Assembly: GCA_013306675.1 (NCBI GenBank)
Contig: JABLUY010000182.1
Span: 1-64,000, forward strand
Direction of reading: 5' to 3'
DNA: 64,000 nt
From: Thraustochytrium sp. TN22
Lineage: Eukaryota; Sar; Bigyra; Thraustochytrida; Thraustochytriidae
Shown here: piece by piece, positions 23,797-54,150 of the stretch
Layout of the letters: each line of letters begins with the position of its first letter
Numbering within the stretch: the stretch's first letter is position 1
Made by a program: the position numbers and the translations under genes
The notes under the pieces: model-generated
Databases searched by the model: none
The model's input: only the letters and a program-made list of their open reading frames with translations
What the model was told of the DNA's origin: nothing

Positions 23797-25314
23797 TCAG
23801 AGCGGGTGCAACTCCAAAGTTGGCATGGTGGTCGGGATGCGGGCAACAACGAACTTGCCATCCGGCGCGGGTTGGTCCGGAGGACTGAGTACGAGCTCGT
23901 AGCGCTGCACAAGTTCGGTGATAAGGCAATACAGCTCGAGCTGCGCGCCGCGCTTGCCGGCGCACAGGTGCGAGGATCCGCCAAAGGGATCACGGCCCAC
24001 GGGCGAGTCCAGTGCCGCACTCATCGGGCAGCCGGACGCCTTTCGGCTCCGCACGCTCGCCCGCAGGAACCGCGTGGGGTCGAAGCGGTCCGCGTCAGGG
24101 ACGAGGCTGAGGTCGCGCGACGGCATGGTGGAGCCAAGCTCGATTCGGGTCCCCTTGGGAATGCGCACGTTCGTGCTTGGGAGCACCACGTCGTGGTCAA
24201 AGGTGCGGGACCCGGACACGTGGACGGATGGGTAGAACCGATGCACCTCCCGGAAAAAGGCCAGCATATACGGGAGAGACGCGCCCTTGTGGTAAGGCGC
24301 GCCCTTGAGCTCGCGCTGGAACTCCTCCCGTAGCTCGGCCTGCGCCTCCGGGTGCTTCACGAGAGCCACCAGCGCCCAGCAGAGCACCGACATGGTGGTC
24401 CCGATGCCCACGGGGGCGAGCAGGGATATCAGGTTGAGCAGCTGCGCCTCGTGAAGGCCCTGCGATCGGAGGTCGGCGAACCAACACTCCGGCAGCTCTG
24501 CCTCGTCCATGCTGCTCAGACGGTGCACGTCGGGCCGCACAATCTCTCGGATGCGGTCCATGGAGGCGCGAAGTTTGCCGTACGCGTTCCAGGGCTGCAG
24601 TATCCACGGCAGATGCTGCAGGCGAAGCGCCAAGCCGATGCTCGTCTCCTCAAGCTTGCCAATCTCCTTGTACGGGGTGGTGCTCTCCGGGTCCGAGGCG
24701 CCCACGCTCTTGCCGAGCAGCAGCGACACGAAGACGTCCAGCGCGGCTGCGCGGGCCCAGCCGCGCATGTCCGAGGCGTATCTGGGCGCAAAGTCCACGG
24801 CCGCGCGCGCGGCGCGCTGGACACTCCCCTCGTACCGCGCGACGGCATCTGAGTTGATGCCCTGCGTGATGAGCGCGCGCGCCTTCTTCCAGTCCTCGCC
24901 AGCGGTGAAGATCTTGCCGGCCACGTTGTCAGGGCCGTCCTTCTCCTCCAGGTACCGCGCGAGCGCGCGGATCTTCACAGACCCCTCGGTGTGGAGGCCG
25001 CCCTGCCTGGCCTCCTCGAGCCAGACGAACTGCAGATCCTTTTGGTCGAAGAGCATCACCTTCTCCGCGCCGTTCGCGTGCCGCCCGCGCACGATGCCGT
25101 CCTCGCGGCCCATTGTCTCGTACAGCTCCTGCCACGCACCGATGCTGTCTTTCGCGCTCTTGAACATGAACATGACGCCCACACTGCGCAGGTCCGCAAG
25201 CTCTCGAGGCGGCGTGGGCGGCGCCTTGTCCCCCGCGGCCGCCAGCGTCGAGGCCTGGGCGCGGGCAACGAGCGCGCGCGGCGCCCTTGCTGTCAGCACC
25301 GAGCGCAACATCAT
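23797..25314 (-). CDS. Cytochrome P450, group A (P450-1)
   Basis: 505 residues from ATG ATG at 25314, intronless. The N-terminus MMLRSVLTARAPRALVARAQ is basic and lacks acidic residues, like a mitochondrial presequence. P450 landmarks are in order: I-helix PVGIGTT, ExxR at Glu356/Arg359 (REVHRFYP), the PERF-type PDADRFDPTRFL, and heme loop FGGSSHLCAGKR with ligand Cys451. The heme loop has His where most P450s have Arg, and Ser where Gly is usual at the fourth position. Also present is GCPMSAALDSP, with its Cys 22 residues before Cys451. The enzyme should be a monooxygenase; the substrate is unknown. It is the first of seven group A genes in the array, all on the minus strand. Confidence 0.93.
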   Translation of the reverse strand: MMLRSVLTARAPRALVARAQASTLAAAGDKAPPTPPRELADLRSVGVMFMFKSAKDSIGAWQELYETMGREDGIVRGRHANGAEKVMLFDQKDLQFVWLEEARQGGLHTEGSVKIRALARYLEEKDGPDNVAGKIFTAGEDWKKARALITQGINSDAVARYEGSVQRAARAAVDFAPRYASDMRGWARAAALDVFVSLLLGKSVGASDPESTTPYKEIGKLEETSIGLALRLQHLPWILQPWNAYGKLRASMDRIREIVRPDVHRLSSMDEAELPECWFADLRSQGLHEAQLLNLISLLAPVGIGTTMSVLCWALVALVKHPEAQAELREEFQRELKGAPYHKGASLPYMLAFFREVHRFYPSVHVSGSRTFDHDVVLPSTNVRIPKGTRIELGSTMPSRDLSLVPDADRFDPTRFLRASVRSRKASGCPMSAALDSPVGRDPFGGSSHLCAGKRGAQLELYCLITELVQRYELVLSPPDQPAPDGKFVVARIPTTMPTLELHPL

Positions 25315-26019
25315 TGTGCTCCTCTCGAAATCCTTTCGGCGCTCGCCCTGCCCGGCTACCCGGCTGGTCACGCGGCGGCCGGCGCGCCCAGCGCCGGCCA
25401 GCCCAGGTGCCAGTGGATGCTGACTCGAGGCCGCCTCCTGCAGCGGCAGTCAACTCCAAGTTGACGGCCTTGACGGCCTTGCCCAAGTTCAAGGTTCGCA
25501 TGGTCCTGCGGCAGAGACTCGACCACCTCTGTCCGACGCGACAAATGGTGCCAGTGCGGGGACTCAGACAGCCTGAGTGACTCGGAGCTCGGATCTAACA
25601 GACTGTGATGATGACGGTGGGCCGAGTGATGTGACGGCGGGCGGCTGCGACTCAGCTCAGAGGGGATCGAGCACGAAGGTGAACTCGTTGTTATAGACGA
25701 GCATGCGTGCGTGCACGAGCAGCGACGAGCGCGAGGTGATGATGATGGCCCGAGCGCGAAGACGAGCTGGAGAGCGCGGCGTCGTGAAAGCAGGACGGAT
25801 GGCACAGGCCTGCGGCGTGAATCGACAAGAATCCTTCCCTTCGAAGTTAGTACCGCGGGTGCCTGCTTGATTGTGAATGTCCGCTCGCCCAGTGACACGT
25901 GGCAGTCGTCTCGGTTCATGTTCCTGGAGGTCACAGGCGTGTCAGGGAGCGGGCAGACGAGAGCACAGGGAGTGGAACTCTGCTAACTTAAGTTAGAAAC
26001 AAACAACAAGAAAAGAGCT
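25315..26019. other. Intergenic region between P450-1 and P450-2
   Basis: 705 bases without a supported gene. It holds the promoter of P450-1 and the 3' region of P450-2, including the second copy of the 14-base palindrome. Confidence 0.6.
25983..25996. repeat. Perfect 14-bp palindrome CTAACTTAAGTTAG (copy 2)
   Basis: Identical to the copy at 5837-5850 and likewise followed by AAA. It begins 24 bases past the stop codon of P450-2, so here it is in 3' flanking or untranslated sequence. Confidence 0.7.
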
Positions 26020-27591
26020 TCAATGAACAATCGGGCGCAGCTCGATGGAGGGAAAGCGCTCCGGGGAGCGAATGATGGACATCTTGCCCTTGGGCGGTTC
26101 TTGATCGCCAGGGCAAAGCACGAGCTCGTAGCGCTGCAGGAGCTCGGCGATGATGCAGTGCAGCTCGAGCTGGGCGCCGCGCTTGCCGGCGCAATGGTGC
26201 GAGGAGGCGCCGAAGGTGTCGCGGCCGATGGGCGCATCCAAGGCGCCGCTCATCGGGCAACCCGAGGCCTTGCGGCTGCGCACGTTGTCGCGCAGGTAGC
26301 GCGACGGGTCAAAGCGGTCGGCGTCAGGCACGAGGTCCTTGTCTCGAGAGGGCATGGTCACGACGACACTGATGCGCGTCCCCGCCGGAATGCGGACGTT
26401 TGTCTTGGGCAACACAATATCGTACTCGAAAGACCGGATCGCAGTCGCGGCACTGCTCGGGTAGACACGGTGGACCTCACGAAAGAAGGCCAACATATAG
26501 GGCAGGGACGCGCCCTTGGCGTACGGCCCGCCCTTGAGCTCGCGCCGGAGCTCGGCGCGCAGCTGGTCCTGCGCGTCCGGGTGGAAAGCCAGGGCCACGA
26601 GCGCCCAGCTGAGCACCGAAGACGTGGTGCCGATGCCGACCGGGATGAGCATGGAGATGATGTTGAGCATCTGTGCCTCGTTCAGGCCCTGGGAGCGCAG
26701 GTCCTTGAACCAGCACGCCGGCAGATCGTCGTCCGCAAAAAGGCGCGCCACGTCCGGCTGCACAATTGTCTGGATGCGGTCCAGCGACGCGGACATCCTG
26801 CTGAACCCATTCCAAGGTCGCAGGTACCAAGGGAGAAAGGTCAGACGGAGCGCAATTCCGAGACTCGTCTCCTCGAGCGAAACGATCTCCTTGTACGGCG
26901 TCGTGCTATCGGGGTCCGACACGCCGGCGAACTTGCCGAGGAGCAGCGCGGTGAACATGTCCAACGACGCGTAATGCGCCCAGCGTCCGAGGTCCGTGTG
27001 CCTCGGCGCTGAGTCTACCGCGGCCCGGGCGGCCTCCTGGACGGTCGTCTCGTAACGAAGAACGGCGTCCGAGTTGATGCCCTGCGTGAGAACGGCACGC
27101 GCCCGCTGCCATTCCTCGCCCACCGAGTTGATCTTGCCGATGACATTGTCCGCGCCGTACTTCTCCTCCTGGTACCGCGAGAGCGCTTCGATCGGGACCG
27201 TGCCCATCGTCCGTAAGCCGCCCAGCCTGGCCTCTTCGCGCATCACGAACTGCGCGTCCTGCTGGTCGAAAAGGAAGACGCGCTCCTTGCCGTCCGCTCC
27301 GGGCGCGCGCACCACGCCCTCCTCGCGTCCCATTTTCTCGTAGAGCTCCTGCAGCGTGTCCTTGGTGTCGTACCTCAGCATGTTCAGAAAGTGCAACCAG
27401 CCTGCACTGCGCAGCTCGGCCACCTCGCGCGGCCTCGTCGCCTCGCCCTGCGCCCCGCCATGCGCTTGCTGCTCCGGCTGCCGAGGCAGTGCCGCGGCCG
27501 TCGAACGAGCAGTGAGTTCACGCGCCGCCGCCGCCACGCCATGGCAGCGCGCGCCGAGTGCGCCGCCGCGTGCGTGCACGCGCCCAAGCAT
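26020..27591 (-). CDS. Cytochrome P450, group A (P450-2)
   Basis: 523 residues from the ATG at 27591; the frame upstream reaches only a GTG. The N-terminus (MLGRVHARGGALGARCHG) is basic and presequence-like. Landmarks are I-helix PVGIGTTSSVLSW, ExxR in REVHRVYP, PDADRFDPSRYL and heme loop FGASSHHCAGKR with Cys467. GCPMSGALDAP precedes it with the same 22-residue spacing. The N-terminal motif REVAELRSAGWLHFLNML matches the other group A proteins, which have RE[ILMV]x[DE]LRSxGW at this point. It appears intact and is arranged head-to-tail with P450-1. Confidence 0.93.
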   Translation of the reverse strand: MLGRVHARGGALGARCHGVAAAARELTARSTAAALPRQPEQQAHGGAQGEATRPREVAELRSAGWLHFLNMLRYDTKDTLQELYEKMGREEGVVRAPGADGKERVFLFDQQDAQFVMREEARLGGLRTMGTVPIEALSRYQEEKYGADNVIGKINSVGEEWQRARAVLTQGINSDAVLRYETTVQEAARAAVDSAPRHTDLGRWAHYASLDMFTALLLGKFAGVSDPDSTTPYKEIVSLEETSLGIALRLTFLPWYLRPWNGFSRMSASLDRIQTIVQPDVARLFADDDLPACWFKDLRSQGLNEAQMLNIISMLIPVGIGTTSSVLSWALVALAFHPDAQDQLRAELRRELKGGPYAKGASLPYMLAFFREVHRVYPSSAATAIRSFEYDIVLPKTNVRIPAGTRISVVVTMPSRDKDLVPDADRFDPSRYLRDNVRSRKASGCPMSGALDAPIGRDTFGASSHHCAGKRGAQLELHCIIAELLQRYELVLCPGDQEPPKGKMSIIRSPERFPSIELRPIVH

Positions 27592-28093: not shown

Positions 28094-29659
28094 TCAATGA
28101 CCTGAGAGCGGGCGCAGCGCTACGGAGGGGAACTTGTCGGGCGTGCGAACAATGGTGGCGATGCCGCCAGGAGGCGTCTGATCCGCAGGGTCGAGCACGA
28201 GCTCGTAGCGCTGCAGAAGCTCGGCAAGGAGACAGTGGATCTCGAGCTGCGCGCCGCGCTTACCGGCGCAGTGGTGCGAAGAGCTGCCGAAGCTGTCGCG
28301 GCCGATTGGCGCGTCCAAAGCGGCGCTCATGGGGCACCCAGAAGCCTTGCGGCTGCGCACGTTCTCGCGCAGGTAGCGCGACGGGTCAAAGCGATCGGCG
28401 TCCGGGATGAGCGTCTGGTCCCGCAGCGGCATGGTGGCCGCAATCTCGATACGCGTTCCCGCAGGGATGCGCACGTTAGTGTTGGGCAGTACGATGTCGT
28501 AGTGAAACTCGCGCGAGCCGGAGAGGACCGTAGCCGGGTACAGGCGGTGCAGTTCGCGGAAGAAGGCCTTCATGTAAGGGAGCGAGGCCTCATTCGAATA
28601 CGGGCCGCCCTTGAGCTCGCGCTGGAACTCGGCGCGCAGCTCGCGCTGAGTTTCGGGGTGGAAAACGAGCGCGACGAGCGCCCAGCTGAGCAGAGACGCC
28701 GTCGTACCGACGCCCACGGGCGTGAGCATCGTGATGACGTTGAGCATCTGCGCCTCATTCAGACCCTGCGAGCGGAGGTCCGCAAACCAGCACACGGGCA
28801 AATTCTCAGCCTCGCAGAGCCGGCGCACGTCTGGTTGCACGATCTCGCGGACGCGGTCCAGGGAAGCGGCCATCTTGTCGCCAGCTCTCCATGGGCGCAT
28901 GAACCAGGGCGCGTGCTGCAGGAGGATGGCGTAGCCCAGGCTGGACACCTCCAGCTCCATTACCTCCCTGTACGGGGAGGAGTTGTCCGGATCCGTGACG
29001 CCGCTCGTCTTGCCGAGGAGCATCGCGGTGAACATGTCCAGCGCGGCAGCTCGCGCCCACTCGCTCAGGTTTTTATGCCTCGGCGCGAAGTCCACCGCGG
29101 TCCGGGCTGCCTCCTGCACAGTGGGCTCGTACTTGAGCACGGCATTCGAGTTGATGCCCCGCGTGAGCAGATTGCGCGCCTCCTTCCACTTTTCGCCCGT
29201 GCGGAACATGTTGCCCAGGACATTGTTCTCGCCATACGTCTTCTCCAGGTACTCGAAGAGGGCGTCCAATTGAACCGAGCCCGTCGTCTTGAGGCCGCCA
29301 TGCTTGCCTTCCTCGCGCATGATGTACTGCAAATCCTGCTGGTCAAAGAGGATGACCTTTTCTTTGCCGCTGGGGTGCGGCGACCGCACGATGCCTTCCT
29401 CGCGTCCCATCTCCTCGTACAGCTGCTGGAACGTTGGCACGATGTCGTGGCCCATCTTGAGCATGAAGCTCCACCCAGTGCTGCGCAGGTCCGAGATCTC
29501 GCGCGGCTTGTTCGCGGTCGCCTCCGGCGATCCCTGCGCCGCCTCCTGCGCTGCTGCAGACGTCGATGCGAGCGCCGCGCCGACCCGGCCGTGGCGCGTG
29601 TTGCTCGCGCCAAGCGCGAGCAGCCTGGACCCGCGCGTGGCCATCATCAGGCGCTGCAT
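28094..29659 (-). CDS. Cytochrome P450, group A (P450-3)
   Basis: 521 residues from the ATG at 29659; codons upstream are open to a GTG at 29836. The N-terminus MQRLMMATRGSRLLALGAS is again basic and presequence-like. Landmarks are I-helix PVGVGTTASLLSW, ExxR in RELHRLYP, PDADRFDPSRYL and heme loop FGSSSHHCAGKR with Cys464. GCPMSAALDAP has the family spacing. It appears intact. The closest relatives by eye are P450-2 and P450-1. Confidence 0.93.
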   Translation of the reverse strand: MQRLMMATRGSRLLALGASNTRHGRVGAALASTSAAAQEAAQGSPEATANKPREISDLRSTGWSFMLKMGHDIVPTFQQLYEEMGREEGIVRSPHPSGKEKVILFDQQDLQYIMREEGKHGGLKTTGSVQLDALFEYLEKTYGENNVLGNMFRTGEKWKEARNLLTRGINSNAVLKYEPTVQEAARTAVDFAPRHKNLSEWARAAALDMFTAMLLGKTSGVTDPDNSSPYREVMELEVSSLGYAILLQHAPWFMRPWRAGDKMAASLDRVREIVQPDVRRLCEAENLPVCWFADLRSQGLNEAQMLNVITMLTPVGVGTTASLLSWALVALVFHPETQRELRAEFQRELKGGPYSNEASLPYMKAFFRELHRLYPATVLSGSREFHYDIVLPNTNVRIPAGTRIEIAATMPLRDQTLIPDADRFDPSRYLRENVRSRKASGCPMSAALDAPIGRDSFGSSSHHCAGKRGAQLEIHCLLAELLQRYELVLDPADQTPPGGIATIVRTPDKFPSVALRPLSGH

Positions 29660-30553
29660 GGTGACTTCGACAACTCGGCGCCAGCCAGTCCGAGTCAGGC
29701 GGGCCGCGCCACGCCCCAGCCGCCGTCCGCAGCGTTGCTCGCCTGCGCCCGCGACGCCGCGACGCCGCGCCGTGTACAGCGCGCTCGCGCTCTGCGCTCG
29801 CCTGCGCCGAGTCAGGATTTGGGTGTCCACATGCACAAGTGTGGCGGCTGTGTCGCCAGAGACAAACTATAATTGCGCCGCCTGGGCCGAAGACGAATTA
29901 TAATTGCTTCTACCAGCCTGAGGTAGAAGGTGAAAAGTGCCAAAGCCCAGCACGCGACGGCGAAGATCGGAGACGTCAGTTCGAGGCGGAGAAGGTGAAG
30001 CATTTCGAAAGGCGGGATTGCAGCAGAGGCGGCCCGTGCATTGATCATCCAGCATGGTATCGCGCTCATCGAGAGTGCCCATGTCGACCTCGTAGCGCTG
30101 GACGAGCTTGGCTATGTATGAGAACGCGTCGGTCGAGCTGGCTGGGCTGTGTGCTTGCCAACGCACTGATCTGATGAGCTCCGCAACCACGCTAGCTTCT
30201 ACAAGTGCACATGCATGCGCACGCGCGCACAACCACGAGAACTGAGACTGCCAACTGGCCTCGAAGATTGTGGCGGATCTCGCGCGTACAGGCTGGCGAG
30301 ATGCCTGTCCGCTGGCTTGAAGTAGACTGTTGCCTGTGGCTGGACGCGACTGTCAACGTCTCATCGCAGTGGCCCCTCCTTGAGCCGGTTTTGGTTGCAA
30401 GGTGAAGATGGATTTCTTATGAGCTCTTCTGGGGGAGCGGCCGCAGGGTCACTTCGTCGCGTCCGGCGGTCTCCAGATCACTGCGCTCCAGGACCGCGAC
30501 GCCGGCCAGGCCAGGGGCCGCCTCGGCATCCGAAACTGATTCCTTTGTCTCCG
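29660..30553. other. Intergenic region between P450-3 and P450-4
   Basis: 894 bases. It contains a decayed P450 3' end (listed separately). A second copy of the GGAGCGGCCGCAGGGTCA sequence, which encodes the P450-4 C-terminus, lies near 30434, so a small local duplication took place. No complete gene is present. Confidence 0.65.
29985..30135 (-). pseudogene. Decayed 3' fragment of a group A P450
   Basis: On the minus strand the sequence at about 30065-30120 encodes YIAKLVQRYEVDMG, matching the helix after the heme loop in the intact genes (IAELVQRYELVLDP). Some 50-80 bases further on, in another frame, SRLSKCFTFS resembles the SRMPKSFPS ending. No heme loop remains. It looks like the 3' end of a lost array member between P450-3 and P450-4. 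Confidence 0.6.
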
Positions 30554-32098
30554 TCACGTGGCGGTCGGGAGCGGCCGCAGGGTCATGGAGGGAAAGTACT
30601 TGGGCATGCGGCTGACGGCCATAACACCTCCGGGCGGGCGCTGGTCTGGGTTATCCAGCACGATCTCGTAGCGCTGAACGAGCTCGGCGACCAGGCAGTT
30701 GAGAATGAGTTGGGCGGCATACTTGCCGACGCACTGGTGCGAGCCGCCGCCGAAGGAGTCGCGGCCGAGACTTGAGTCGAGTGCGGCGCTCATCGGACAG
30801 CCTGATGCCTTGCGGCTGCGCACGTTCTCGCTCAGGTACCGCGAAGGGTCAAAGCGGTCGGCATCCGGCACCAAACTTGGGTCGCGCGACGGCATCGTGA
30901 GCCCCATTTCAATCAGGGTCCCCTGGGGCACGCGCACATTCGTGTGTGGGAGCACGATATCGTGATCGAAGCAGCGAAGACTAGCAATCGGGCTCGAGGG
31001 GTACACGCGATGGACCTCCCTCAGGAAAGCATCCATGTACGGGAGGGTGGCGCGCTTCGAGTAGGGCTCGCCCTTGAGCTCGCGCTGCAGCTCTGCGCGG
31101 AGCTCGCTTTGCGCCTCGGGGTGGAATGCAAGCGCGATGATGGCCCAGTCCACGAGGGCGATCAGCGGGGCGAATCCCAGGGGCAGAAGGACGGAGATGG
31201 CATTCAGCAACTGCGTGTCGTTCAGCCCTTGAGCACGCATGTCTGTGAGCCAGCTCCTGTAGGGAGCGGCGGTATCTGAGGATTCCGTCGTCGCCGTGCC
31301 CTCCACGTTGGGCCTGACGATCTCGCGGATTCGATCCATGGACGTACAGAGCTTTGCGTAGGCGTTCCAGGGGTGCAGCCATTTCGGAAAGTACTGAAGC
31401 ATGATGGCGTTGTATGCAGAGGTCTTTTCGAGTTTCAGAATCTCCACGTAAGGGCTGCTGGCCTGGGCGGGGTCCGTAATGCCAATTTGCGCACCAAGCA
31501 TGAGCGCCATGAAGGCTTCCAGCGTCGCGAGGGACGCCCAGGCGCCCAGGTCCTTGTGCTTTGCTGCGAAGTCGACGGCGCTGCGAGCGGCGATCTGCGT
31601 GCCGGCCTCACACTTGCTCACGTTGTCCGAATTGATGCCTGCGGAGACGGCCTTTCGGGCCTGCCGCCAAGCTTCGCCCTTGGAGAACACGCGACCGGCC
31701 ACATCGTCCTCGCCATCCTTCTCGTCCAGGTAGCGCACGATTTGGCCGAGCACCAGGGCTGCGGTGCCTTGAACGTTCAGCCCCCCGCCTCGCACTTCCT
31801 GTTGATAGACGTAGAGCAGGTCGCGCTGGTCGAAGAGAATGATCTTGTCCTTGCCATCAACATGCAGGGCGCGCACAACGCCGTCTTCACGGCCCATGTC
31901 CTCGTAGAGCTGCTGCCAGGTCGGTACCATGTCCAGGAACATTTTCGGGAGCCACATCCAGCCTGGGCTGCGCAAGTCCGAGAGTTCGCGCGGGCGCCCT
32001 GACGCCGCCGTCGTGTTATCCTTCTGGACTAGGTCTTGCCCCACCATGTCGCGCTTCGGTTCGCCCGAGAATCGCTGCATCCAGCCCAGGCCCACCAT
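30554..32098 (-). CDS. Cytochrome P450, group A, with atypical I-helix (P450-4)
   Basis: 514 residues from the ATG at 32098. That start matches the paralogue lengths; the frame stays open to 32701 through repetitive sequence. Landmarks are ExxR in REVHRVYP, PDADRFDPSRYL, heme loop FGGGSHQCVGKY with Cys456, and GCPMSAALDSS with family spacing. The I-helix reads LPLGFAPLIALVDW, so the Gly-Thr-Thr found in most paralogues is replaced by Ala-Pro-Leu. In P450s that Thr usually helps activate oxygen. The protein may therefore use peroxide, catalyse an isomerase-type reaction or be inactive. The presequence (MVGLGWMQRFSGEPKRD) is less clear than in the neighbours. Confidence 0.9.
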   Translation of the reverse strand: MVGLGWMQRFSGEPKRDMVGQDLVQKDNTTAASGRPRELSDLRSPGWMWLPKMFLDMVPTWQQLYEDMGREDGVVRALHVDGKDKIILFDQRDLLYVYQQEVRGGGLNVQGTAALVLGQIVRYLDEKDGEDDVAGRVFSKGEAWRQARKAVSAGINSDNVSKCEAGTQIAARSAVDFAAKHKDLGAWASLATLEAFMALMLGAQIGITDPAQASSPYVEILKLEKTSAYNAIMLQYFPKWLHPWNAYAKLCTSMDRIREIVRPNVEGTATTESSDTAAPYRSWLTDMRAQGLNDTQLLNAISVLLPLGFAPLIALVDWAIIALAFHPEAQSELRAELQRELKGEPYSKRATLPYMDAFLREVHRVYPSSPIASLRCFDHDIVLPHTNVRVPQGTLIEMGLTMPSRDPSLVPDADRFDPSRYLSENVRSRKASGCPMSAALDSSLGRDSFGGGSHQCVGKYAAQLILNCLVAELVQRYEIVLDNPDQRPPGGVMAVSRMPKYFPSMTLRPLPTAT

Positions 32099-32911: not shown

Positions 32912-34497
32912 TTAGTCATTATGTTGCGCCGCCGCGTTGACGGGCCGCAAGTTGATCGAGGGAAAGCTTTTTGGCATGCGACTCGCTACGATAAAGCCGC
33001 CAGGCGGGCGTTGGTCGGCCGGGTCCAGAACGAGCTCGTAGCGTTGCACAAGCTCGGCAATGAGACAGTGCACCTCGAGCAAGGCGGCTCGTTTCCCGGC
33101 GCATTGGTGCGCCCCGCCGCCAAAGTCGTCGCGGCCCACGGGCGAGTCGAGCGCCTCGCTCATGGGGCAACCCGAAGCCTTGCGGGCGCGTACCGCCTCG
33201 CCAAAGTAACGCGAAGGGTCAAAGCTGTCCGTGTCCGGGACGAGGCTCGGGTCGCGCGATGGCATGGTGGTGCCCAATTCGATGCGAACGCCTTTGGGCA
33301 CGCGAACGTTGGTATGGGGCAGCACGATATCACGATCAAAGGTGCGCACGCTGCCCACCGGGGTGGACGGATACACGCGGTGGACCTCGCGGCGAAAGGC
33401 GGCAAAGTACGGCAGCGTCGCGCCCTGGTAAAAAGGTCCGCCCTTGAGCTCGGCCTGGAGCTCGGCCCGGACCTTGGCTTGGGCGTCTGGGTGGAAGGCG
33501 AGCGCGATGATGGTCCAGCTCAAAAGGGAGACGGTGGTGCCGAGGCCGGCAGGAAGGAGGAGCGACACAATGTTGAGCAGCTGCACGTTGTTGAGCCCCT
33601 GGGAGCGCAGATCCGCAAACCAGCAAACTGGCAGGTCCTCTGGCCTTTCGCGCATGAGTAGATCCACATCTGGCTTGGCGATCTCCCGGATGCGGTCCAG
33701 GGCCGCGGAGAGCTTGTCATAAGCCTTCCACGGCTGCAGCCACCACGGCAGGAACTGCAAGGCGATCGCGTAGCCCATAGTGAACTTTTCGAGCTCCAAA
33801 ATTTCCTTGTACGGACTGGACGAGCCCGGGTCCGCAATGGCCACCTGCTTGCCGAGCAAGAGCGCCATGAAGACGTCCAAGGTCGCAGCACGGGCCCAGG
33901 CGCCGAGGTCCTGATGCTTGTCCGCGAAGTCGACGGCCGTTCGCGAGGCGGCCTGCACGATGCTCTCATACCTGTCGACCGAGTCCGAGTTGATGCCCGA
34001 GGCAATGATGGTGCGCGCCTTCTTCCAAGCTTCGCCTCGAGTGAGGATCTTGCCCACCACGTCGTCCTCGCCGTCCTTTTCTTCGAGGTAGCGCACCAGG
34101 GCGTCCAGCACCACGGAGCCATCGGTGGCAAGGCCGCCAAGCCTGGCGTCCTCGCGGTAAACGAAGAGGATGTCCTTTTGATTGAAGAGGATGATCTTGT
34201 CCTTGCCGTCCGGGTTCATGGCTCGCACCACGCCATCCTCTCGACCCACGCTCTCGTATAGGCCCTGCCACGTAGGCAGGATGTCCAGCACCATCTTGGG
34301 GAGCCACGTCCAGCCAGCGCTGCGCAGCTCGGACATCTCACGCGGGCGCGCTGCCTTGGTCTGGCCAGGGTCCAGGGGTCCGCGCTTCTCCGGCGGGGGC
34401 TGCTTGCCCGAGAGCCATGCCAGCATCCTTGGCGCGCTGCTCCGGCCTTGCGCCACTGCCACCGACGTCGCCGCCTCCGCCTCCGCCGCCGCTGCTG

Positions 34498-34540
<43 letters not shown>

Positions 34541-34660
34541 GTCGCGACGCGAGTTCGCGCTCTGCTTTCTGGCAGTGCCTGACAGTGTCATCATGAAGTG
34601 CAGCACGTGCACGTCCGAGGTACGGGACTGCCAGGGCTGCCGCAGCATCGCATGCATCAT
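32912..34660 (-). CDS. Cytochrome P450, group A, with poly-Ala leader (P450-5)
   Basis: 582 residues from the ATG at 34660; ATGs at 34657 and 34648 are alternatives. The leader is long and includes a run of about 14 Ala residues from a (GCC)n tract near residues 41-54, followed by an Ala/Glu-rich stretch. The P450 part is complete: PREMSELRSAGW, I-helix PAGLGTTVSLLSW, ExxR in REVHRVYP, PDTDSFDPSRYF, and heme loop FGGGAHQCAGKR with Cys520. GCPMSEALDSP has the family spacing. Only 91 bases separate its start codon from the stop of P450-6, so its promoter is very short or overlaps the upstream gene. Confidence 0.92.
34499..34541. repeat. (GCC)n tract coding for poly-Ala in P450-5
   Basis: An uninterrupted GCC/GCG run on the plus strand, read as Ala codons on the minus strand. 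It is likely to vary in length. Confidence 0.9.
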
Positions 34661-34751: not shown

Positions 34752-36437
34752 TCAGTTTTGGTTCTGAATCGGTTTGAGCCGCGTGGAAGGGAAGGACTTG
34801 GGATCACGGACAACAACAGTGGCGCCGCCGGGAGGGCGTTGATCGGCAGGATCGAGCACAACCTCATAACGTTGAATGAACTCGGCGATGAAGCAGTAAA
34901 GCTCGAGTTGCGCACCGCGTTTGCCGGCGCAGTGGTGGGAACCGCCGCCGAAGGCGTCGCGACCGGCCGGCGAGTCGAGTGCAGAGCTCATCGGACAGCC
35001 AGAGGCCTTGCGGGCGCGCACGGCGTCGCGCAAGTAGCGTGATGGGTCGAAGCGGTCGTTGTCAGGGACGAGCGTAGGGTCGCGCGAAGGCATCGTGGCG
35101 CCCATCTCGATGCGGACGCCCTTTGGAATGCGCACGTTGGTGTTGGGCAGCACAATGTCATGGTCAAAGGTGCGGACGCTTCCTACTGGCGTGGACGGGT
35201 AGACGCGGTGCACCTCGCGGAAGAAGGCGAGCATGTAGGGCGACTTGGCGCCCTTGTAGTACGGGCCGCCCTTGAGCTCGCGCTGGATCTCGGCACGGAG
35301 CTCTGCCTGCGCCTCTGGGTGAAAGGCAAGCGCAAGGATCGACCAGCGCAGAACGGAAGACGTCGTGCCGACGCCAATGGGCGTGAGCAGAGACATAATG
35401 TTCATCAGCTGGGCGTCGTTCAAGCCCTGACTGCGAAGATCAGCGAACCAAGAAGGCTTCAGGTCCTCTGCCTTGGCCTCGCACAGGTGGCGAATGTCGG
35501 GCGTGATTATCTCACGAATGCGGTCCAAAGCCTCCGCCAGCTTCTCGCGGCCCTTGTAGGGCCGCAAGAACCATGGAAAGTACTGGAGTCGGAGCGCGTA
35601 GCTGATGGACTTCTCGTCCAGATCCAGAATTTCGCGGTACGCACTGGGATTCTTCGGGTCCGCGATGCCGGCCTGCTTGCCAAGCAGGAGAGCAACGAAG
35701 AGATCCAGGGCCGAGCTGCGCAGCCAAGTTTCCAGGTCCGTGCTCTCCATGGCAACGTCGACGGCTCGGCGAGCGGCCTCCTGTACGCTGCTCTCGTACT
35801 TGGTGACTGCGTTCGAGTTGATGCCCGCAGTGATGATATCGCGGGCCTTTTTCCATTCCTCCCCGTCACCTAGGATCTTGCCGACGACGTTGTTCTCGCC
35901 GTCCTTCTTGTCCAGGTAATCCCTGAGAGCGTCCATCTTGACGGACCCCTTAACACGCGTGCCGCCGCCCTTGGAGTCTTCGCGGTAGATGAACTGCAGG
36001 TCGCCATGGTCAAAGAGAATAACCTTGCTTGAGCCGTCAATGTCCGGGGCGCGCACGATGCCGTCCTCGCGCCCCAGGTCCTCGTACAGCTGCTGCCACG
36101 TCGGCAAGATATCCAATCCCATCTTGGGCACCCAGCTCCAGCCGGTGCTGCGCAGCTCGCTGATCTCGCGCGGCCGCACCTCCGCCCGCTCCGCCACCTG
36201 CGTCGAGGCGCTCCGCGTTGCGCGGCCCCCGCCTGCCGCAGTGGCGGCAGCAGCAGCGGCACGGCGCCAGGCCGCGCCGCGAACCGTCTGCGCAGCAAGC
36301 ATGCTGCTCGCGTGCGCGCTTGCGTGCGCGCTCGCGAGCCCCGCGCCCCGAGAGCAGGCGACTGCGCGCTGTTCGAGCGCGCGCGGGCTTCTCGATTTGC
36401 CATGGTTGCTGAGACCCGAGAAGACCATGATCATCAT
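34752..36437 (-). CDS. Cytochrome P450, group A (P450-6)
   Basis: 561 residues if the ATG at 36437 is used. The ATG at 36302 (MLAAQTVRGAAWRRAAAAAA) gives 516 residues with a cleaner mitochondrial-like presequence and fits the paralogue lengths better. Landmarks are PREISELRSTGW, I-helix PIGVGTTSSVLRW, ExxR in REVHRVYP, PDNDRFDPSRYL and heme loop FGGGSHHCAGKR (Cys503 on the long form). GCPMSSALDSP has the family spacing. It is divergently arranged with group B gene P450-7 across 466 bases, the junction between the two P450 types. Confidence 0.92.
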   Translation of the reverse strand: MMIMVFSGLSNHGKSRSPRALEQRAVACSRGAGLASAHASAHASSMLAAQTVRGAAWRRAAAAAATAAGGGRATRSASTQVAERAEVRPREISELRSTGWSWVPKMGLDILPTWQQLYEDLGREDGIVRAPDIDGSSKVILFDHGDLQFIYREDSKGGGTRVKGSVKMDALRDYLDKKDGENNVVGKILGDGEEWKKARDIITAGINSNAVTKYESSVQEAARRAVDVAMESTDLETWLRSSALDLFVALLLGKQAGIADPKNPSAYREILDLDEKSISYALRLQYFPWFLRPYKGREKLAEALDRIREIITPDIRHLCEAKAEDLKPSWFADLRSQGLNDAQLMNIMSLLTPIGVGTTSSVLRWSILALAFHPEAQAELRAEIQRELKGGPYYKGAKSPYMLAFFREVHRVYPSTPVGSVRTFDHDIVLPNTNVRIPKGVRIEMGATMPSRDPTLVPDNDRFDPSRYLRDAVRARKASGCPMSSALDSPAGRDAFGGGSHHCAGKRGAQLELYCFIAEFIQRYEVVLDPADQRPPGGATVVVRDPKSFPSTRLKPIQNQN

Positions 36438-43836: not shown

Positions 43837-43871
<35 letters not shown>

Positions 43872-45730: not shown

Positions 45731-47185
45731 TCAGAGCCTGCTCAGGCTCTTGCGCGGCACGCGCTGCGGCGTCTCGGTGCCAGCAACACGTTTGGGCACG
45801 TTCTGGAACTCTGTGCCGTCGGCGAGCTCCTCCGCAACGATCTCGGCAACATCGGCGCGGCAGCGAGCGCCCTGGCAGTTGCCCATGCCGGCGCGGCAGC
45901 GCCACTTGACGGCGTCTGTAGAGGTGATGGGAATGCCGGCCTGGCGGATGGACTGCCGAATCGCCGCCTCGCTCACCTGCTCACAGTGGCACACAATGCG
46001 GCTCGCCTTGTCCGCAACCACCTCGGGCTGGTGCAACGGGTGGCGGCGCGAAGGCTGAAAGTCGCCGCGCGGGCGGATCGCCAGACCACAGCCGGCCAGG
46101 AGGTCCCGCACCATCTGGGCGATGGCCGGCGAACTGGTCAGGCCTGGGCTCTCGATTCCAGCGGCGTGAATGAAACGCGGCAGGGTGGCGTCCGGCTCGA
46201 TGATGAAGCCTCGACCCGAGCGCGCACGCAGACCGGAGAAGCTTGTCAAATTCTGCCGTGTGTCCAGGTGCGGCACGGAGCGGCGAGCGGCCCAGGCCAC
46301 GTAGGCCAGCTCCTGCATGTCGGTGGACCGGTCCTCCTTCGACTCCTGCTCCGCGGCCGAGGGCCCGAGCAAAAGGTTGCCCGATACGGTGGGCGAGACC
46401 AAGATGCCCTTGCCCCAGCGAACCGTAGGGCACTGGAAAATGACCGTGTTTGCCATGTGGCCCTGCGACTTCTCCAGCAGCACGTACTGGCCCTTGCGCG
46501 GCAGAATCTTGTACGAAGTACCGGCGCCCGCCAGGCTTGCCACCGTGTCGGCGTACAGACCGGCCGCGTTCACCACATAATTGGCGTACACGACAGCGCC
46601 CTCGCGCGTCTCCAGGCGGTACACCTCTTCGCCGCCACGCAGCGGGCGCACGCGGTCAATGCTCACGACCTCGGCGCTCACGCGGACTTGGGCGCCGTTG
46701 GCGATCGCGTTCTCTGCGAGCGCGAAGCAGTACTCGTACGGACTCACGATGCCTGCGCTCGGGCAGTGGAGTGCCGCACGCACGCCCACGCTCACGTGCG
46801 GCTCCATGGCGCGCACCTGGTCCCCGTCGAGCATCTTCAGGTCATCCACGCCATTCAGTCGGCCGTTTTCCATCAGGTTCTCCAGCTCGCCCACCTCCTG
46901 CTCCGTGAAGGCGAGCACGAGCGAACCGATCTGCTGAAAGCCAAAGTCCAGCTCCGCGTTGAGCTGAGCGAACTGACGGTTGCCGCGCCGGCTCAGATCG
47001 CCCTTGAGCGTCCCGTGCTTGGCGTCGTAGCCCCCGTGCACGATGCCGGAGTTCGCCTTGCTCGCGCCCTGCGCCAGGTCCGCCGCCTTCTCCAGCAGGA
47101 CCACCTTGACGTCCTCGAGCTTGCTCAGCTCGCGCGCCACGGCGCAACCCACCACACCGCCGCCCACCACCGCCACGGTCGCCAT
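45731..47185 (-). CDS. FAD-dependent oxidoreductase with C-terminal BFD-like [2Fe-2S] domain (GlpA-like)
   Basis: 484 residues from the ATG at 47185 (MATVAVVGGG). Further open frame upstream would add an Ala-rich leader and cannot be excluded. The Rossmann motif GGGVVG at residues 8-13 and ANSGIVHGGYD identify a DAO-superfamily flavoprotein of the glycerol-3-phosphate dehydrogenase/L-2-hydroxyglutarate oxidase kind. The C-terminus has four Cys placed as in BFD-like [2Fe-2S] domains: C399-x-C401 (VCHCEQ) and C437/C442 (GMGNCQGARC). This two-domain layout is common in bacterial GlpA-type proteins and in some protists. It oxidises a hydroxy acid or polyol phosphate and could pass electrons through the cluster. 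It lies between P450s; a role as their electron donor is speculation. Confidence 0.9.
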   Translation of the reverse strand: MATVAVVGGGVVGCAVARELSKLEDVKVVLLEKAADLAQGASKANSGIVHGGYDAKHGTLKGDLSRRGNRQFAQLNAELDFGFQQIGSLVLAFTEQEVGELENLMENGRLNGVDDLKMLDGDQVRAMEPHVSVGVRAALHCPSAGIVSPYEYCFALAENAIANGAQVRVSAEVVSIDRVRPLRGGEEVYRLETREGAVVYANYVVNAAGLYADTVASLAGAGTSYKILPRKGQYVLLEKSQGHMANTVIFQCPTVRWGKGILVSPTVSGNLLLGPSAAEQESKEDRSTDMQELAYVAWAARRSVPHLDTRQNLTSFSGLRARSGRGFIIEPDATLPRFIHAAGIESPGLTSSPAIAQMVRDLLAGCGLAIRPRGDFQPSRRHPLHQPEVVADKASRIVCHCEQVSEAAIRQSIRQAGIPITSTDAVKWRCRAGMGNCQGARCRADVAEIVAEELADGTEFQNVPKRVAGTETPQRVPRKSLSRL

Positions 47186-47766
47186 GCTCCAGGCCGTCGA
47201 AGCCGCCGCCGCTGCCGCCGCCGCTGCTGCCTTTGCGGCGCTGCAGAGATTGATGATGCTGTGCTGTAATGTCGGCCCGTCTGCCCTGCCTCCTCCTGTC
47301 CGGCTTCGAGTCGCCTGGTCCTTCAAGTTGGCAGTGCGGCGATGACGCGGCCCAAGCGTCCCGGCCGCGCAGGCTGCCGCTCTGGCGGACCAGGGCCAAG
47401 CATCAATCATGGCCAAACTGTTTGTTTGCCAGTGGCGCAAGGCAAGCAAGCGGTCTCTCGGTCCTGCTGCGTTTGGTAATAACACTTTTCCCTGGCAGCT
47501 GCGTGCTGCAGCGCATGGAGACGTGATGCAGGACCTTTTGCGTAGTAGTAGGGGCTGGACGGTGACAGCCTCCTGGTCGGAAAATGAAGCACGAAACGGT
47601 GGGGCTGCGCAGCTCCACAAAAACAAAAAAGAACTCAAGGGGACCATCTGAGCATAACTTGAAGTGCACTCGCTCTGCTCAGGCCTTGTCCTACACGTGG
47701 AGACTCGGCGTGCTGGCCGTGCACATGCAGAGCATGTCCCTGATGATGATTTTCCTTTCGTATATG
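47186..47766. other. Intergenic region between the flavoprotein gene and P450-10
   Basis: 581 bases. The minus-strand frame of the flavoprotein stays open through it, which gives some chance of an N-terminal extension. It also contains the start of the segment duplicated at 52.4 kb (from about 47760). Nothing else is seen. Confidence 0.55.
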
Positions 47767-49508
47767 TCAACCGAGGCGATGGAGGCGCACCTGAGGAAAG
47801 GGCTCCGGGACGCCGGTCAGGACGCGCTTAAAGGCAGGGCGCGGCTGGCCCACCGGGTCCTCCACCAGCTCGTACCGACGCAAAAATGTGCAAAGCAAGA
47901 TGCGCAGCTCCTGCGTGGCGACGACGCGGCCCAGGCAGGAGCGAGAGCCGAAGCCGAAGGCGTGCTTGGCCAGCGGGTTATCGAGCTGCGACTGGACAGG
48001 GCAGCCCTTGCGCTTCTGCTTGTTCTCGCGCAGGTACCGCTCCGGCTTGAACTCGTCCGCATCGGGAATCACCGAGGGGTCCCGCATGACGTACGTCGGG
48101 CAGAACTCCATGAAGGTACCGGCCGGCACGCGCAGGTTGCTCTTGGGTAGAATCACGTCGTGATCAAGCTTCCGCTTGGTGCTGGACGGCGTCGGCGGGT
48201 AGACACGGTATGTTTCAGCCACCCAGGCATCGAGATACGGAATCTTGGCGTCCATGGTGTACGGCTCGTCGCCAAGCGCCGCCATGATCTCCGTACGCAG
48301 CTTCGCTTGCTCCTCCGGATGCCGCGCGAGGGCGACGAGGAACCAGGTCCACACGCCGCTGGTTGTGCCAAGGCCGGCAGAGAGGAGCGAACCGACGATC
48401 TTCTCGGCCTGGTCCTCGGTGAGCGTCTCCTTGAGGTCCGCCAGGTAGCACGACGGATGATCAGCCTTCTCGTCCAGCTGCTTGACGTAGGGCTTGCCCA
48501 CTTCCGTCATCTTGTCCAAGGTGGCATACATTTTCTCGCGCGCCCGGAAAGGGTGGGTGAACCACGGCGTGAACTCGCGACGCACGGCGAGGTGGATGCC
48601 GCTATGCTCCAGTTCGATAAGCTCCTTGAGCGGGTGCGTACACGCAGGGTCGACAGTCTTGGGGTTCTCGCCGAGCATCATGGACGTGAAGAGGTCAAAG
48701 ACACTAAGATACGTGCGGGGCAAGCGGTGCGAGGCAAGCGGCGCGAGGCAGGCGAGCGCGAGAAGGTGAGGCGCGTCAGTTTGGTGCTGGTAGCCTTGCC
48801 GGCGCTCCAAGAAGAACTCACGTGTTTTGGGACCAGGTGCGCATGTCCTTCTCGTAAAGCTCCACCTTATCCACGGCATACTCCGCGGCGGCCGTAATGG
48901 TGGGGATGTAAGCGCTGCACGCGCCCGTGTTGATGCCGTGCTGCAGCTTTTGCCGGACCTCGCGCACAATAGGTCCGCTGCGGCCCAACTGCAGGCTCAG
49001 ATTATCCTCGTTGTCGCCGCCACGGTCCAGGTTGTACTCCTCCAGCGTGCGCAGGCTTGAGATGCCTACCGGGCAGACGCCCTCGTTGTGCATGACGTGC
49101 AGCATGTCTGCGTGTGGGTCCCGAGAAACCGGTCAGCGACTGCGCAAGCTTGGGAATGAAGCAGACAAACTCACCTTCCTGGTTGAACACCAGCAGCTCC
49201 TTCTCCAGCGTGGCCCCTCGCACGATCGCAACGCCGCCGTTGCCCTTGGCGTACTTTTCGTACACGTTCTTGTACGCGCTGACCGTGTCGCCCATGGCGT
49301 TCTCCTTCAAGAACCAGTAGCCCGGGCCCGGGACATCAGCCAGCTCACGGGGCGGCGGCACCTGCTCCTCGGGGCCCGCGTTCGTGACCACCTCCGTCGC
49401 CGCCGCCACGGTCGACTTGTAGGTCGACTTGTAGCGTGCCGCCGCTTGCACGGCCGCTCGCTGCTGTGTCGACACCCATGTGGCGGTCTTGACGCCGTGA
49501 CGCCACAT
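47767..49508 (-). CDS. Cytochrome P450, group B, three exons (P450-10)
   Basis: Exons in gene order are 49508-49175, 49107-48822 and 48703-47767. They join to 518 residues with no break. Introns are at the first two group B positions (after NQE, phase 1; before VFDLF, phase 2). The third group B intron is absent, so GSLLSAGLGTTSGVWTW is continuous. Leader MWRHGVKTATWVSTQQRAAV is presequence-like. ExxR is in AETYRVYP, the PERF type is PDADEFKPERYL, and the heme loop is FGFGSRSCLGRV with Cys463. GCPVQSQLDNP has the family spacing. It is nearly identical to P450-11 and lies in the same duplicated segment. Confidence 0.93.
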
Positions 49509-49749
49509 CCTGCTCCGAGGCGTCGCGTGTCAGCGCCGAAGCGTCTACGCTCGCTCGCTCGCCCACGTGCTTGCTCGCCCGCTCGCGATCGCTGCTGCTC
49601 TTCGTCCCCGCGTTGCGCCGCGCGGCTTTGACTGCGAATTAGAATGAATTAGGCCGAGCTGGAGGTATGGACGTCAGGTACCGCTATTCGGTACGCATGC
49701 ACTTTGTGTACCATGGTACCAAGGTACCACCGAAGTCAGCAAGGCAGGT

Positions 49750-50199: not shown

Positions 50200-50436
50200 C
50201 GTGACAAAGTCACTACGCAGCGTCGGGCCCTCGGGGTGTGGTTGTAAAGGCCCGATATGGTAGTTTGGCTTGCGGTTTGCGGCTTGCGGTTTGCGACCCG
50301 ACTTGACTTGACTTCAACACTCGGTGGCTCGGGACGCACGTGCATTGCGTCTCATGGCTCCATGTAAAGGCTTTGCAAGGTCAGCTGCTGTCTTCGTCTT
50401 CGTCAGACAGAAGGCAATAATAACAAGTGCAAGGCA

Positions 50437-50703
50437 ATGCGGCGCCAGGACCTCAACTTCGTGGATCCCCGTAGCACCCCGACCGAGGTGGCTCTCGTGC
50501 TCGCACAAGCCACGTTCTATGTTCTCATGGGAATCTGCATTGGTCAAGAGGTCGCCGGCGATGCCGGTGTCGTCCTCCGCTTTGCTTTCGCTGTGGCGAG
50601 CCTGTGTGTCACCTTGGTTCTGATGCTCCCACTGCACAGCTACGAGTATGCAGACGTGGTGGCAGGTGTGGTAGTGCTGGGTTCCGCTGCTGCCGCGTGC
50701 TAA
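50437..50703 (+). CDS. Possible small membrane protein
   Basis: 88 residues from the ATG at 50437, with two or three hydrophobic segments: VALVLAQATFYVLMGICIG, VVLRFAFAVASLCVTLVLML, and a last one, YADVVAGVVVLGSAAAAC. A Gly/Ser-rich frame continues on the same strand from about 50711 and might be a further exon. No family is recognised. The case rests on the hydrophobic pattern and composition only. Confidence 0.38.
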   Translation: MRRQDLNFVDPRSTPTEVALVLAQATFYVLMGICIGQEVAGDAGVVLRFAFAVASLCVTLVLMLPLHSYEYADVVAGVVVLGSAAAAC

Positions 50704-50966
50704 GAGGACTGTGTGGGCTTTCGGGGCACTGACGCCGCCTTTGGCGGCCTCTGGCGGCAAGTCGAGCTCCGGAAGCAGTGGTAGCTACGGAAGCGGCGCG
50801 GGGCGAGTGCCCCGCACTGTGGCGGTCCCCTTCCGAACGGCGATGCGCGGTGGCGGCGCCGGCGGCGCTGGACCAGGTGGTCGCACGCTCACAGTCGACG
50901 GCCTCAACATCGGATCTGTTCTGGGGGGCTGCCGCTGCTGGTGGCAGCAAAGCATGAGGGAGACTA

Positions 50967-52238: not shown

Positions 52239-52401
52239 CCTCCCGTCCGCGCGCCAGCGCGCCCGCCAGAAACGCGCTCTGTCTCTACAAACGCGCTCTG
52301 CCTCTACGGCTCCCACGCTGTCAGGCCCTGCAAAGGTCGGAGGGGGGCGCGACGTGTCACTTAGGTTAGGTTAGGTTTTATGGCAACACAAACCGAAAAT
52401 G

Positions 52402-54150
52402 TCAACCGAGGCGATGGAGGCGCACCTGAGGAAAGGGCTCAGGGACACCGGTCAGGACGCGCTTAAAGGCAGGGCGCGGCTGGCCCGCCGGGTCCTCCAC
52501 CAGCTCGTACCGACGCAGAAATGTGCAAAGCAAGATGCGCAGCTCCTGCGTGGCAACGACGCGGCCCAGGCAGGCGCGAGAACCGAAGCCGAAGGGATGC
52601 TTGACCAGCGGGTTATCGAGCTGCGACTGGACAGGGCAGCCCTTGCGCTTCTGCTTGTTCTCGCGCAGGTACCGCTCCGGCTTGAACTCGTCCGCATCGG
52701 GAATCACCGAGGGGTCCCGCATGACGTACGTCGGGCAGAACTCCATGAAGACACCGGCCGGCACGCGCAGGTTGCTCGTGGGCAGAATCACGTCGTGATC
52801 AAGCTTACGCCTGTTGGTGGAAGGCAGCGGCGGGTATACGCGGTATGTTTCAGCCATCCAGGCATCGAGATACGGAATCGTGGCGTCCATGGTGTACGGC
52901 TCATCGCCAAGCGCCGCCACGATCTCCATACGAAGCTTCGCCTGCTCCTCCGGATGCCGCGCGAGGGCGACGAGGAACCAGGTCCACACGCCGCTGGTTG
53001 TGCCAAGGCCGGCAGAGAGGAGCCCCCCCAGAAGCTTCTCGGCCTGGTCCTCGGTGAGCGTCTCCTTGAGGTCCGCCAGGTAGCACGGCGGATGATCAAC
53101 CTTCTCGTCCAGCTGCTTGACGTAGGGCTTGCCCAAATCCCTGAGCTTGTCCAAAGCGGCATACATCTTCTCGCGCGCCCGGAAAGGGTGGGTGAACCAC
53201 GGCGTGAACTCGCGACGCACGGCGAGGAGGATGCCGCTATGCTCCAGGTCGATAAGCTCCTTGAGCGGGTGCGTACACGCAGGGTCGACAGTCTTGGGGT
53301 TCTCGCCGAGCATCATGGACGTGAAGAGGTCAAAGAGACTGCGTGCAAGGCAAGCGGTGCAAGGCAAGCGGTGCGAGGTAGGCGGGCGCGAGAAGGCGAG
53401 GCGCGTCAGTTTGTTTGGCTTTGTTTGGCTTTTTCTGGTAGCCTTGGTTGCCTCGGCGCTCCAAGAAGAACTCACGTGTTTTGGGACCAGCTGGGCATGT
53501 CCTTCTCGTAAAGCTCCACCATATCCACGGCATTCTCCGCGGCGGCCGTAATGGTGGGGATGTAAGCGCTGCACGCGCCCGTGTTGATGCCGTGCTGAAG
53601 CTTCTGCCGGACCTCGCGCACAATAGGTCCGCTGCGGGCCAGCTGCAGGCTCAGATTATCCTCGTTGTCGCCGCCACGGTCCAGGTTGTACTCTTCCATA
53701 GTGCGCATGTTTGCAGTGCCCACCGGGCAGACGCCCTCGTTGTGCAAGACGTGCAGCATGTCTGCGTGTGGGTCCCGAGAAACCGGTCAGCGACTGCGCA
53801 AGCTTGGGAATGAAGCAGACAAACTCACCTTCCTGGTTGAACACCAGCAGCTCCTTCTCCAGCGTGGGCCCTCGCACGATCGCAACGCCGCCGTTGCCCT
53901 TGGCGTACTTTTCGTACACGTTCTTGTACGCGCTGACCGTATCGCCCATGGCGTTCTCCTTCAAGAACCAGTAGCCCGGGCCCGGGACATCAGCCAGCTC
54001 ACGGGGCGGCGGCACCTGCTCCTCGGGCCCCGCGTTCGTGGCCGCCGCCGCCGCCGCCGCCACGGTCGACTTGTAGCGCGCCGCCGCGTGCACGACCACG
54101 CGCCGCTGCGCCGACACCCACATTGCGTTCTTCATGCCGTGACGCCACAT
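52402..54150 (-). CDS. Cytochrome P450, group B, three exons (P450-11)
   Basis: Exons in gene order are 54150-53829, 53761-53476 and 53338-52402. They join to 514 residues without a break. Exon 2 and exon 3 have exactly the same lengths as in P450-10 (286 and 937 bases), and the introns sit at the same two positions. Leader MWRHGMKNAMWVSAQRRVVV is presequence-like. I-helix GLGTTSGVWTW, ExxR in AETYRVYP and heme loop FGFGSRACLGRV (Cys459) are present. GCPVQSQLDNP has the family spacing. It differs from P450-10 by only scattered substitutions, mainly near the exon 3 start and in the substrate-recognition region around PPLPSTNRRK. Confidence 0.93.

What the first reader, a model, noticed from the sequence alone, without database searches (positions are those of the whole stretch)
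23797..54150. Eleven-gene cytochrome P450 array of two related groups, probably mitochondrial
Eleven P450 genes plus one decayed fragment occupy about 30 kb. Seven intronless group A genes and four intron-bearing group B genes share unusual signatures. Most begin with basic, acid-free leaders instead of a hydrophobic anchor, which suggests mitochondrial import. Outside animals, mitochondrial P450s are little known, so an expanded family in a protist would be notable. The substrate could be sterol-, fatty acid- or carotenoid-like, but the sequence does not say.
Basis: partly seen in the sequence, partly recalled or inferred. Interest (0 to 1): 0.78.

Follow-up and report, generated by a model that had tools for sequence, protein, structure and literature searches.

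The report
Mitochondrial-like P450 array in a protist
A single-celled eukaryote, probably a thraustochytrid, carries eleven neighbouring cytochrome P450 genes of one family that look most like the mitochondrial P450s of animals, mostly have leaders that could take them into mitochondria, and lack a normally conserved acid in the oxygen-binding helix, which matters because mitochondrial P450s are usually described as an animal speciality.

Summary
The array is real: seven intronless (A) and four intron-bearing (B) P450 genes plus a relic; B1 has a frameshift. Two more members (group C) lie on contig C417. A+B+C form one clade, 100/100. The sequence profile and the predicted fold of A3 (ranks 1-17 are CYP11A1/11B1/11B2/24A1) are nearest to animal mitochondrial P450s; C1 has the published mitochondrial motif. 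The tree leaves the sister group open; three candidates survive AU tests. Leaders are basic, acid-poor and anchor-free in 10 of 13 members against 4 of 23 other P450s, but charge alone does not separate them (10 of 13 against 12 of 23), and 20-29% of random ATGs pass. Adrenodoxin reductase and ferredoxins exist. Mitochondrial import is likely, not shown; substrate unknown. Toxoplasma has a published mitochondrial P450 (PMC10499268).

The parts
23797..25314 (-). A1, intronless P450, 505 aa, basic leader
26020..27591 (-). A2, intronless P450, 523 aa, basic leader
28094..29659 (-). A3, intronless P450, 521 aa; no acid in the first 30 residues; the one member folded (residues 1-49 low confidence, about 51-518 align to mitochondrial P450s)
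30062..30174 (-). P450 relic: heme loop and following helix of an A4-like gene, in two frames
30554..32098 (-). A4, intronless P450, 514 aa from the chosen Met; no basic leader from either Met tried; I-helix Thr-Thr lost
32912..34660 (-). A5, intronless P450, 582 aa, long alanine-rich N-terminus, leader ambiguous
34752..36437 (-). A6, intronless P450, 561 aa, basic leader
36904..38706 (+). B1, P450 with three introns (37229-37333, 37623-37687, 38016-38099) and a +1 frameshift near 37845
39196..40994 (+). B2, P450 with three introns (39539-39618, 39908-39983, 40311-40387), 521 aa; the start is a chosen Met, an earlier in-frame ATG exists
41207..42793 (-). A7, intronless P450, 528 aa, basic leader; I-helix Thr-Thr lost
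45731..47770 (-). Open frame inside the array: type 2 glycerol-3-phosphate-oxidase-like FAD enzyme plus BFD [2Fe-2S] domain; relation to the P450s unknown
47767..49508 (-). B3, P450 with two introns (48704-48821, 49108-49174), 518 aa, no acid in the first 30 residues
50967..52316 (-). TPR-repeat open frame between B3 and B4, not a P450
52402..54150 (-). B4, P450 with two introns (53339-53475, 53762-53828), 514 aa, 90% identical to B3, no acid in the first 30 residues

Best explanation
The array is a tandem expansion of one P450 family found, in everything that could be searched here, only in this genome, most likely that of a thraustochytrid. Most members are probably made with a cleavable basic presequence, imported into the mitochondrion, and supplied with electrons by the cell's adrenodoxin reductase and mitochondrial [2Fe-2S] ferredoxin, as in the animal CYP11/24/27 enzymes. 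They probably act on lipids (sterol-, fatty-acid- or isoprenoid-like), different copies on different substrates. Because the acid of the I-helix acid-alcohol pair is replaced by Gly (or Ala/Ser) in all 13 members, and A4 and A7 have also lost the Thr pair, oxygen activation is probably not the textbook monooxygenase relay. Shown: the array, the clade, the motif losses, the presence of the redox partners. Inferred: import, electron supply, substrate, altered chemistry.
Against: No localisation data. 20-29% of random ATG windows here pass the leader criteria; by charge alone 12 of 23 other P450s pass as well (p 0.13), and at a looser anchor cut-off of 1.5 the contrast is weak (10 or 9 of 13 against 9 of 23, p 0.03 or 0.08). 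The cut-off was set after seeing the values, and the members are relatives, not independent trials. A4 has no basic leader, A5 a doubtful one. A cleavage-like motif was found in 5 of 12 members but in only 1 of 5 mitochondrial controls, so it says nothing. The first of the two K-helix lysines that bind adrenodoxin in CYP11A1 (recalled) is absent in 11 of 12 rows, and group B has no basic residue in either place. C1 alone matches CYP4B1 as well as CYP24A1 (75.7 against 74.8 bits). The tree leaves the sister group open (36/48). The redox partners exist in most eukaryotes for Fe-S synthesis (recalled).
Confidence: 0.5

Rival explanations
1. The proteins are not mitochondrial. The basic N-termini reflect G+C-rich codon use (many Arg, Ala, Gly), and the enzymes are soluble or loosely ER-bound P450s served by a diflavin reductase.
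For: 29% of random ATG windows in this window are basic and acid-poor, 20% also without an anchor. By charge alone the other P450s of the genome do not differ (12 of 23). Four FAD_binding_1 matches, not assigned further, are candidates for a P450 reductase. A4 and A5 lack good leaders.
Against: Charge together with lack of an anchor does separate the family (10 of 13 against 4 of 23); five mitochondrial-type enzymes share the pattern; fold and sequence profile rank mitochondrial P450s first.
Confidence: 0.27
2. The family does not work as electron-fed monooxygenases but as peroxide- or hydroperoxide-using or isomerising P450s; the lost I-helix acid marks a peroxygenase- or allene-oxide-synthase-like chemistry. 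The glycerol-3-phosphate-oxidase-like gene inside the array could supply hydrogen peroxide.
For: Acid missing in all 13 members, Thr pair missing in A4 and A7. Type 2 glycerol-3-phosphate-oxidase-like frame between A7 and B3. That CYP152, CYP74, CYP5 and CYP8 lost the acid is recalled.
Against: The other 11 members keep Thr-Thr, and groups A and C keep the C-helix Trp (sequences). The oxidase scores 294 bits against a curated cut-off of 460, and that it sits in the array was seen in this one genome only. In NCBIfam, A3 and C1 match no peroxygenase model; a CYP152 model was hit weakly only by a different P450, L028.
Confidence: 0.25
3. The similarity to animal mitochondrial P450s is convergent: an ordinary P450 lineage moved to the mitochondrion on its own and kept or gained a few similar motifs. 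This rival concerns ancestry only and can be true together with the best explanation.
For: Sister group unresolved; groupings with CYP17/76 or CYP4B1 are no more rejected than one with the animal mitochondrial clan (p 0.156, 0.147, 0.161). The Toxoplasma mitochondrial P450 is most similar to microsomal CYP26B1 (PMC10499268, section 7), so such a move seems possible.
Against: Exact C-x-GRR-x-x-E motif in C1 and the first 17 ranks of the fold comparison point to one clan.
Confidence: 0.45

Closest known systems
Animal mitochondrial P450 clan (CYP11A1, CYP11B1/2, CYP24A1, CYP27)
   Same: Best profile and fold matches (CYP27 not among the rows seen); a Pro-Arg ... Pro-Gly opening after the leader in groups B and C, less clear in A; C-x-GRR in group C; adrenodoxin reductase and ferredoxin in the genome.
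   Different: I-helix acid absent; adrenodoxin-binding lysines of the K helix only partly kept; a longer stretch with a Gly-Cys-Pro motif before the heme loop; 18-22% identity in the aligned structures of ranks 1-17; not an animal.
TgCYP450mt of Toxoplasma gondii (PMC10499268)
   Same: A P450 of a protist placed in the mitochondrion (predicted from hyperLOPIT, section 7; the title places it there).
   Different: Described as a single gene; a transmembrane domain and highest similarity to microsomal CYP26B1.
Blooming P450 families of oomycetes (CYP5014, CYP5015, CYP5017; PMC4486971)
   Same: Tandem expansion of one family.
   Different: The term mitochondri does not occur in that paper's main text; sequences not compared.
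Acid-less P450s (CYP152, CYP74, CYP5, CYP8; recalled)
   Same: No acid in the I-helix acid-alcohol pair.
   Different: None of these appeared among the rows shown; here Thr-Thr is usually kept.

Membership tests
Cytochrome P450 superfamily (PF00067) | Match to the family profile, ExxR, heme Cys loop | tested here: met
   10 of 10 proteins scanned match; ExxR and Cys in 12 of 12 rows (rows entered only with a heme motif)
Animal-type mitochondrial P450 clan | Cleavable mitochondrial presequence | tested here: inconclusive
   10 of 13 leaders fit (9 with strict first ATG), A4 and A5 do not; 4 of 23 other P450s fit; random rate 20-29%; no predictor or experiment
Animal-type mitochondrial P450 clan | C-x-GRR-x-x-E motif (PMC3790746, passages) | tested here: inconclusive
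   C1 complete, C2 C-x-GRR only, A C-x-GKR in 6 of 7 (A4 GKY), B C-x-GRV
Animal-type mitochondrial P450 clan | Nearest solved fold is a mitochondrial P450 | tested here: met
Animal-type mitochondrial P450 clan | Groups with CYP11/CYP24 in a tree | tested here: inconclusive
   Not joined in the best tree; joint clade not rejected, p 0.161
Animal-type mitochondrial P450 clan | Basic residues of the K helix that bind adrenodoxin (recalled) | tested here: inconclusive
   Second site K/R in A and C, not in B; first site K only in A3
Animal-type mitochondrial P450 clan | Adrenodoxin reductase and mitochondrial ferredoxin in the same cell | tested here: met
   not specific, since Fe-S synthesis needs them too (recalled)
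Canonical monooxygenase P450 | Acid-alcohol pair in the I helix | tested here: not met
   Acid absent in 12 of 12 rows and in B1
TgCYP450mt | Sequence kinship | not tested
   Full sequence not held in the tools used

The most novel reading that the evidence does not exclude
These are true members of the mitochondrial P450 clan outside animals, so the clan is older than animals (or was passed between lineages), and this lineage expanded it to at least 13 genes while replacing the I-helix acid, giving a set of mitochondrial P450s with a different way of activating oxygen.
Probability: 0.3. Interest if true: 0.78.

Novelty: new variant of a known kind. Interest (0 to 1): 0.6.

Why it matters
[quoted passage not shown] PMC10499268 says many studies place their appearance after animals split from fungi and plants (passage), while describing one in Toxoplasma whose highest similarity is to microsomal CYP26B1 (section 7). 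A protist family with the mitochondrial motif and the nearest fold makes the age of the clan testable by one well-sampled tree. The family-wide loss of the I-helix acid makes it a natural test of how far oxygen activation can be rewired. Thraustochytrids are used to make lipids (recalled), so enzymes that may modify sterols or fatty acids have practical interest, if the organism is one.

Tried and rejected
Several unrelated CYP families in one array: rejected, the family is one clade at 100/100. Bacterial or viral origin: 16 loci in GTDB genomes match at 24-32% identity in the best segment, as generic P450s; none of 40 candidate stretches in IMG/VR is a relative. Both scans use short conserved patterns and would miss distant kin; no eukaryote collection could be searched, so 'only in this genome' means only in what was searched. 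Cleavage-site motif: no use as evidence. Naming the organism by its 18S rRNA: the search never returned an answer. No RNA family reached its cut-off in the window. Foldseek's own PDB search could not be run; only the VIA-align second look was obtained, and no control fold. Papers: searches; I saw their listings only (the top 1-12 rows each, of up to 660 hits), and no listed title concerned this family. Only open-licence PMC papers are searched. Of papers, I saw passages of PMC10499268, PMC3790746 and PMC4486971, and section 7 of the first; no whole text.

Rows dropped: five other P450 frames of this genome (L031, L032, L033, L036, L040) had no recognised heme motif and are missing from the tree and the motif table, as are two of 16 bacterial loci (L016, L019) and the fragment L041; B1 was left out of the tree. 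Starts of the 23 other P450s are simply the first ATG of the frame and may be wrong. For the family the start is the first ATG in 10 of 13; A4, B2 and C1 use a later Met. The control leaders start at a Met that I picked, and the lipoamide dehydrogenase is named from its sequence (recalled motif).

Correction made on checking: I had counted 3 of 23 other P450s by hand and put that number into the script (p 0.0002); the recount by script is 4 of 23, and the contrast depends on the anchor cut-off. For this I lowered the best explanation from 0.55 to 0.50 and raised the non-mitochondrial rival from 0.22 to 0.27.
Full report
Setting. The window is contig C91 of a 37.9 Mb, 453-contig genome; the window is 61-71% G+C in 2 kb steps and its B genes have GT-AG introns. 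A PfaA-type polyunsaturated fatty acid synthase with a 3044-codon frame scores 2540 bits over that frame, and such synthases in eukaryotes are typical of thraustochytrids (recalled). The organism is therefore probably a thraustochytrid, but no rRNA answer could be obtained.

The array. Group A proteins are 47-63% identical to each other, group B 52-90% (B1 over its left part), and A to B 27-36%. B3 and B4 are a recent duplicate, 92% identical over 1.9 kb, dS 0.10. Within group A dS is 0.85-1.41 and dN 0.29-0.50, ratios about 0.2-0.5, so all seven, including A4 and A7, have been under constraint. A relic lies at about 30062-30174. A whole-genome search with A6 gives matches above 50 bits only on C91 and C417. 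The two C417 genes, C1 and C2, are 38-44% identical to A6 in the matched parts and bring the family to 13. The introns of C2 lie at other places than those of group B.

What they are. The 10 proteins scanned are P450s by Pfam. In a 55-row tree of the C-terminal half (289 columns; 12 family members, 18 other P450s of this genome, 14 bacterial, 11 from the PDB) the family is one side of a branch at 100/100. Its neighbour is not resolved: 36/48 for standing beside a group of CYP17/76 and the animal mitochondrial P450s. Holding the family together with the animal mitochondrial rows, with CYP17/76 or with CYP4B1 is not rejected (p 0.161, 0.156, 0.147).

Leaders. Ten of 13 members have at least four R/K and at most one D/E in the first 30 residues and no 19-residue stretch above 1.2 on the Kyte-Doolittle scale near the N-terminus; 4 of 23 other P450s do (p 0.0007). 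With strictly the first ATG it is 9 of 13 (p 0.003). Charge alone does not separate them: 10 of 13 against 12 of 23, p 0.13. At a cut-off of 1.0 the counts are 9 of 13 and 2 of 23 (p 0.0003), at 1.5 they are 10 of 13 and 9 of 23 (p 0.03), or 9 of 13 with first ATGs (p 0.08) (all; the cut-off of 1.2 was chosen). Five mitochondrial-type enzymes of this genome, three of four E2 subunits, one ferredoxin and one lipoamide dehydrogenase, look alike. The null is high: 29% of 1034 random ATG windows pass the charge criterion, and 157 of 772 longer ones pass both. Lack of an ER-type anchor is thus the informative part.

Redox partners. An adrenodoxin reductase (contig C2; 343 bits to PDB 1cjc) and two adrenodoxin-type ferredoxins (C424, C220) are present, the second with a basic leader. 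They would be expected in most eukaryotes with mitochondria (recalled) and so allow, but do not prove, a class I system.

The unusual feature. At the I-helix acid position (D or E in 42 of 43 comparison rows; the exception, L028, has His) the family has Gly in 10 of 12 rows, Ala in A4 and Ser in A7; B1 has Ala. A4 and A7 also lack the Thr pair. Group B also lacks the C-helix Trp that A and C keep. By established P450 knowledge (recalled) the acid-alcohol pair delivers protons for O-O bond cleavage, and lineages that lost it often use peroxides or isomerise. This is the ground for the peroxygenase rival, and the glycerol-3-phosphate-oxidase-like frame inside the array (294 bits, curated cut-off 460) is a possible but unproven peroxide source.

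Known work. PMC10499268 (passages; section 7) reports a single mitochondrial P450 in Toxoplasma, most similar to microsomal CYP26B1, so a protist mitochondrial P450 is not new in itself. PMC4486971 (passages) describes tandem P450 blooms in oomycetes without the word mitochondria in its main text. The listings showed no title on this family. What is new, as far as seen, is the combination: a tandem family, nearest in fold to animal mitochondrial P450s, with a family-wide loss of the I-helix acid.

Noticed in passing
contig C42:75346-90435 (L042, L043): A second tandem P450 array, seven genes in single open frames of another family (clade 100/99 of seven, near CYP97 and CYP46 rows), with the usual I-helix acid.
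   Followed up: partly
window 45731-47770 (-): Glycerol-3-phosphate-oxidase-like FAD enzyme with a BFD [2Fe-2S] domain sitting inside the P450 array.
   Followed up: partly
window 2491-3547, 4581-5637, 6182-7230: Three direct copies of about 1 kb, 80-86% identical, left of the array; gene content not examined.
   Followed up: no
window 50967-52316 (-): TPR-repeat open frame with internal repeats of about 177 bases between the B3/B4 duplicates.
   Followed up: no
contig C124:26703-41142 (L074-L076): PfaA-type PUFA synthase, 3044-codon frame, with a 2083-codon frame on the other strand beside it that also matches parts of PfaA.
   Followed up: no
contig C410:25857-39995: A 5691-codon open frame with repeated matches to parts of PfaA, probably a modular polyketide synthase.
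   Followed up: no
contig C220 (L010): Adrenodoxin-type ferredoxin with a long N-terminal extension of about 115 residues; the same 38 kb contig carries a P450 outside the family, L035.
   Followed up: partly
window 62288-63964 (-): E2 subunit of a 2-oxoacid dehydrogenase; read further upstream in L056 it seems to have two lipoyl domains and a leader beginning MWRQ, like MWRH of B3 and B4.
   Followed up: partly
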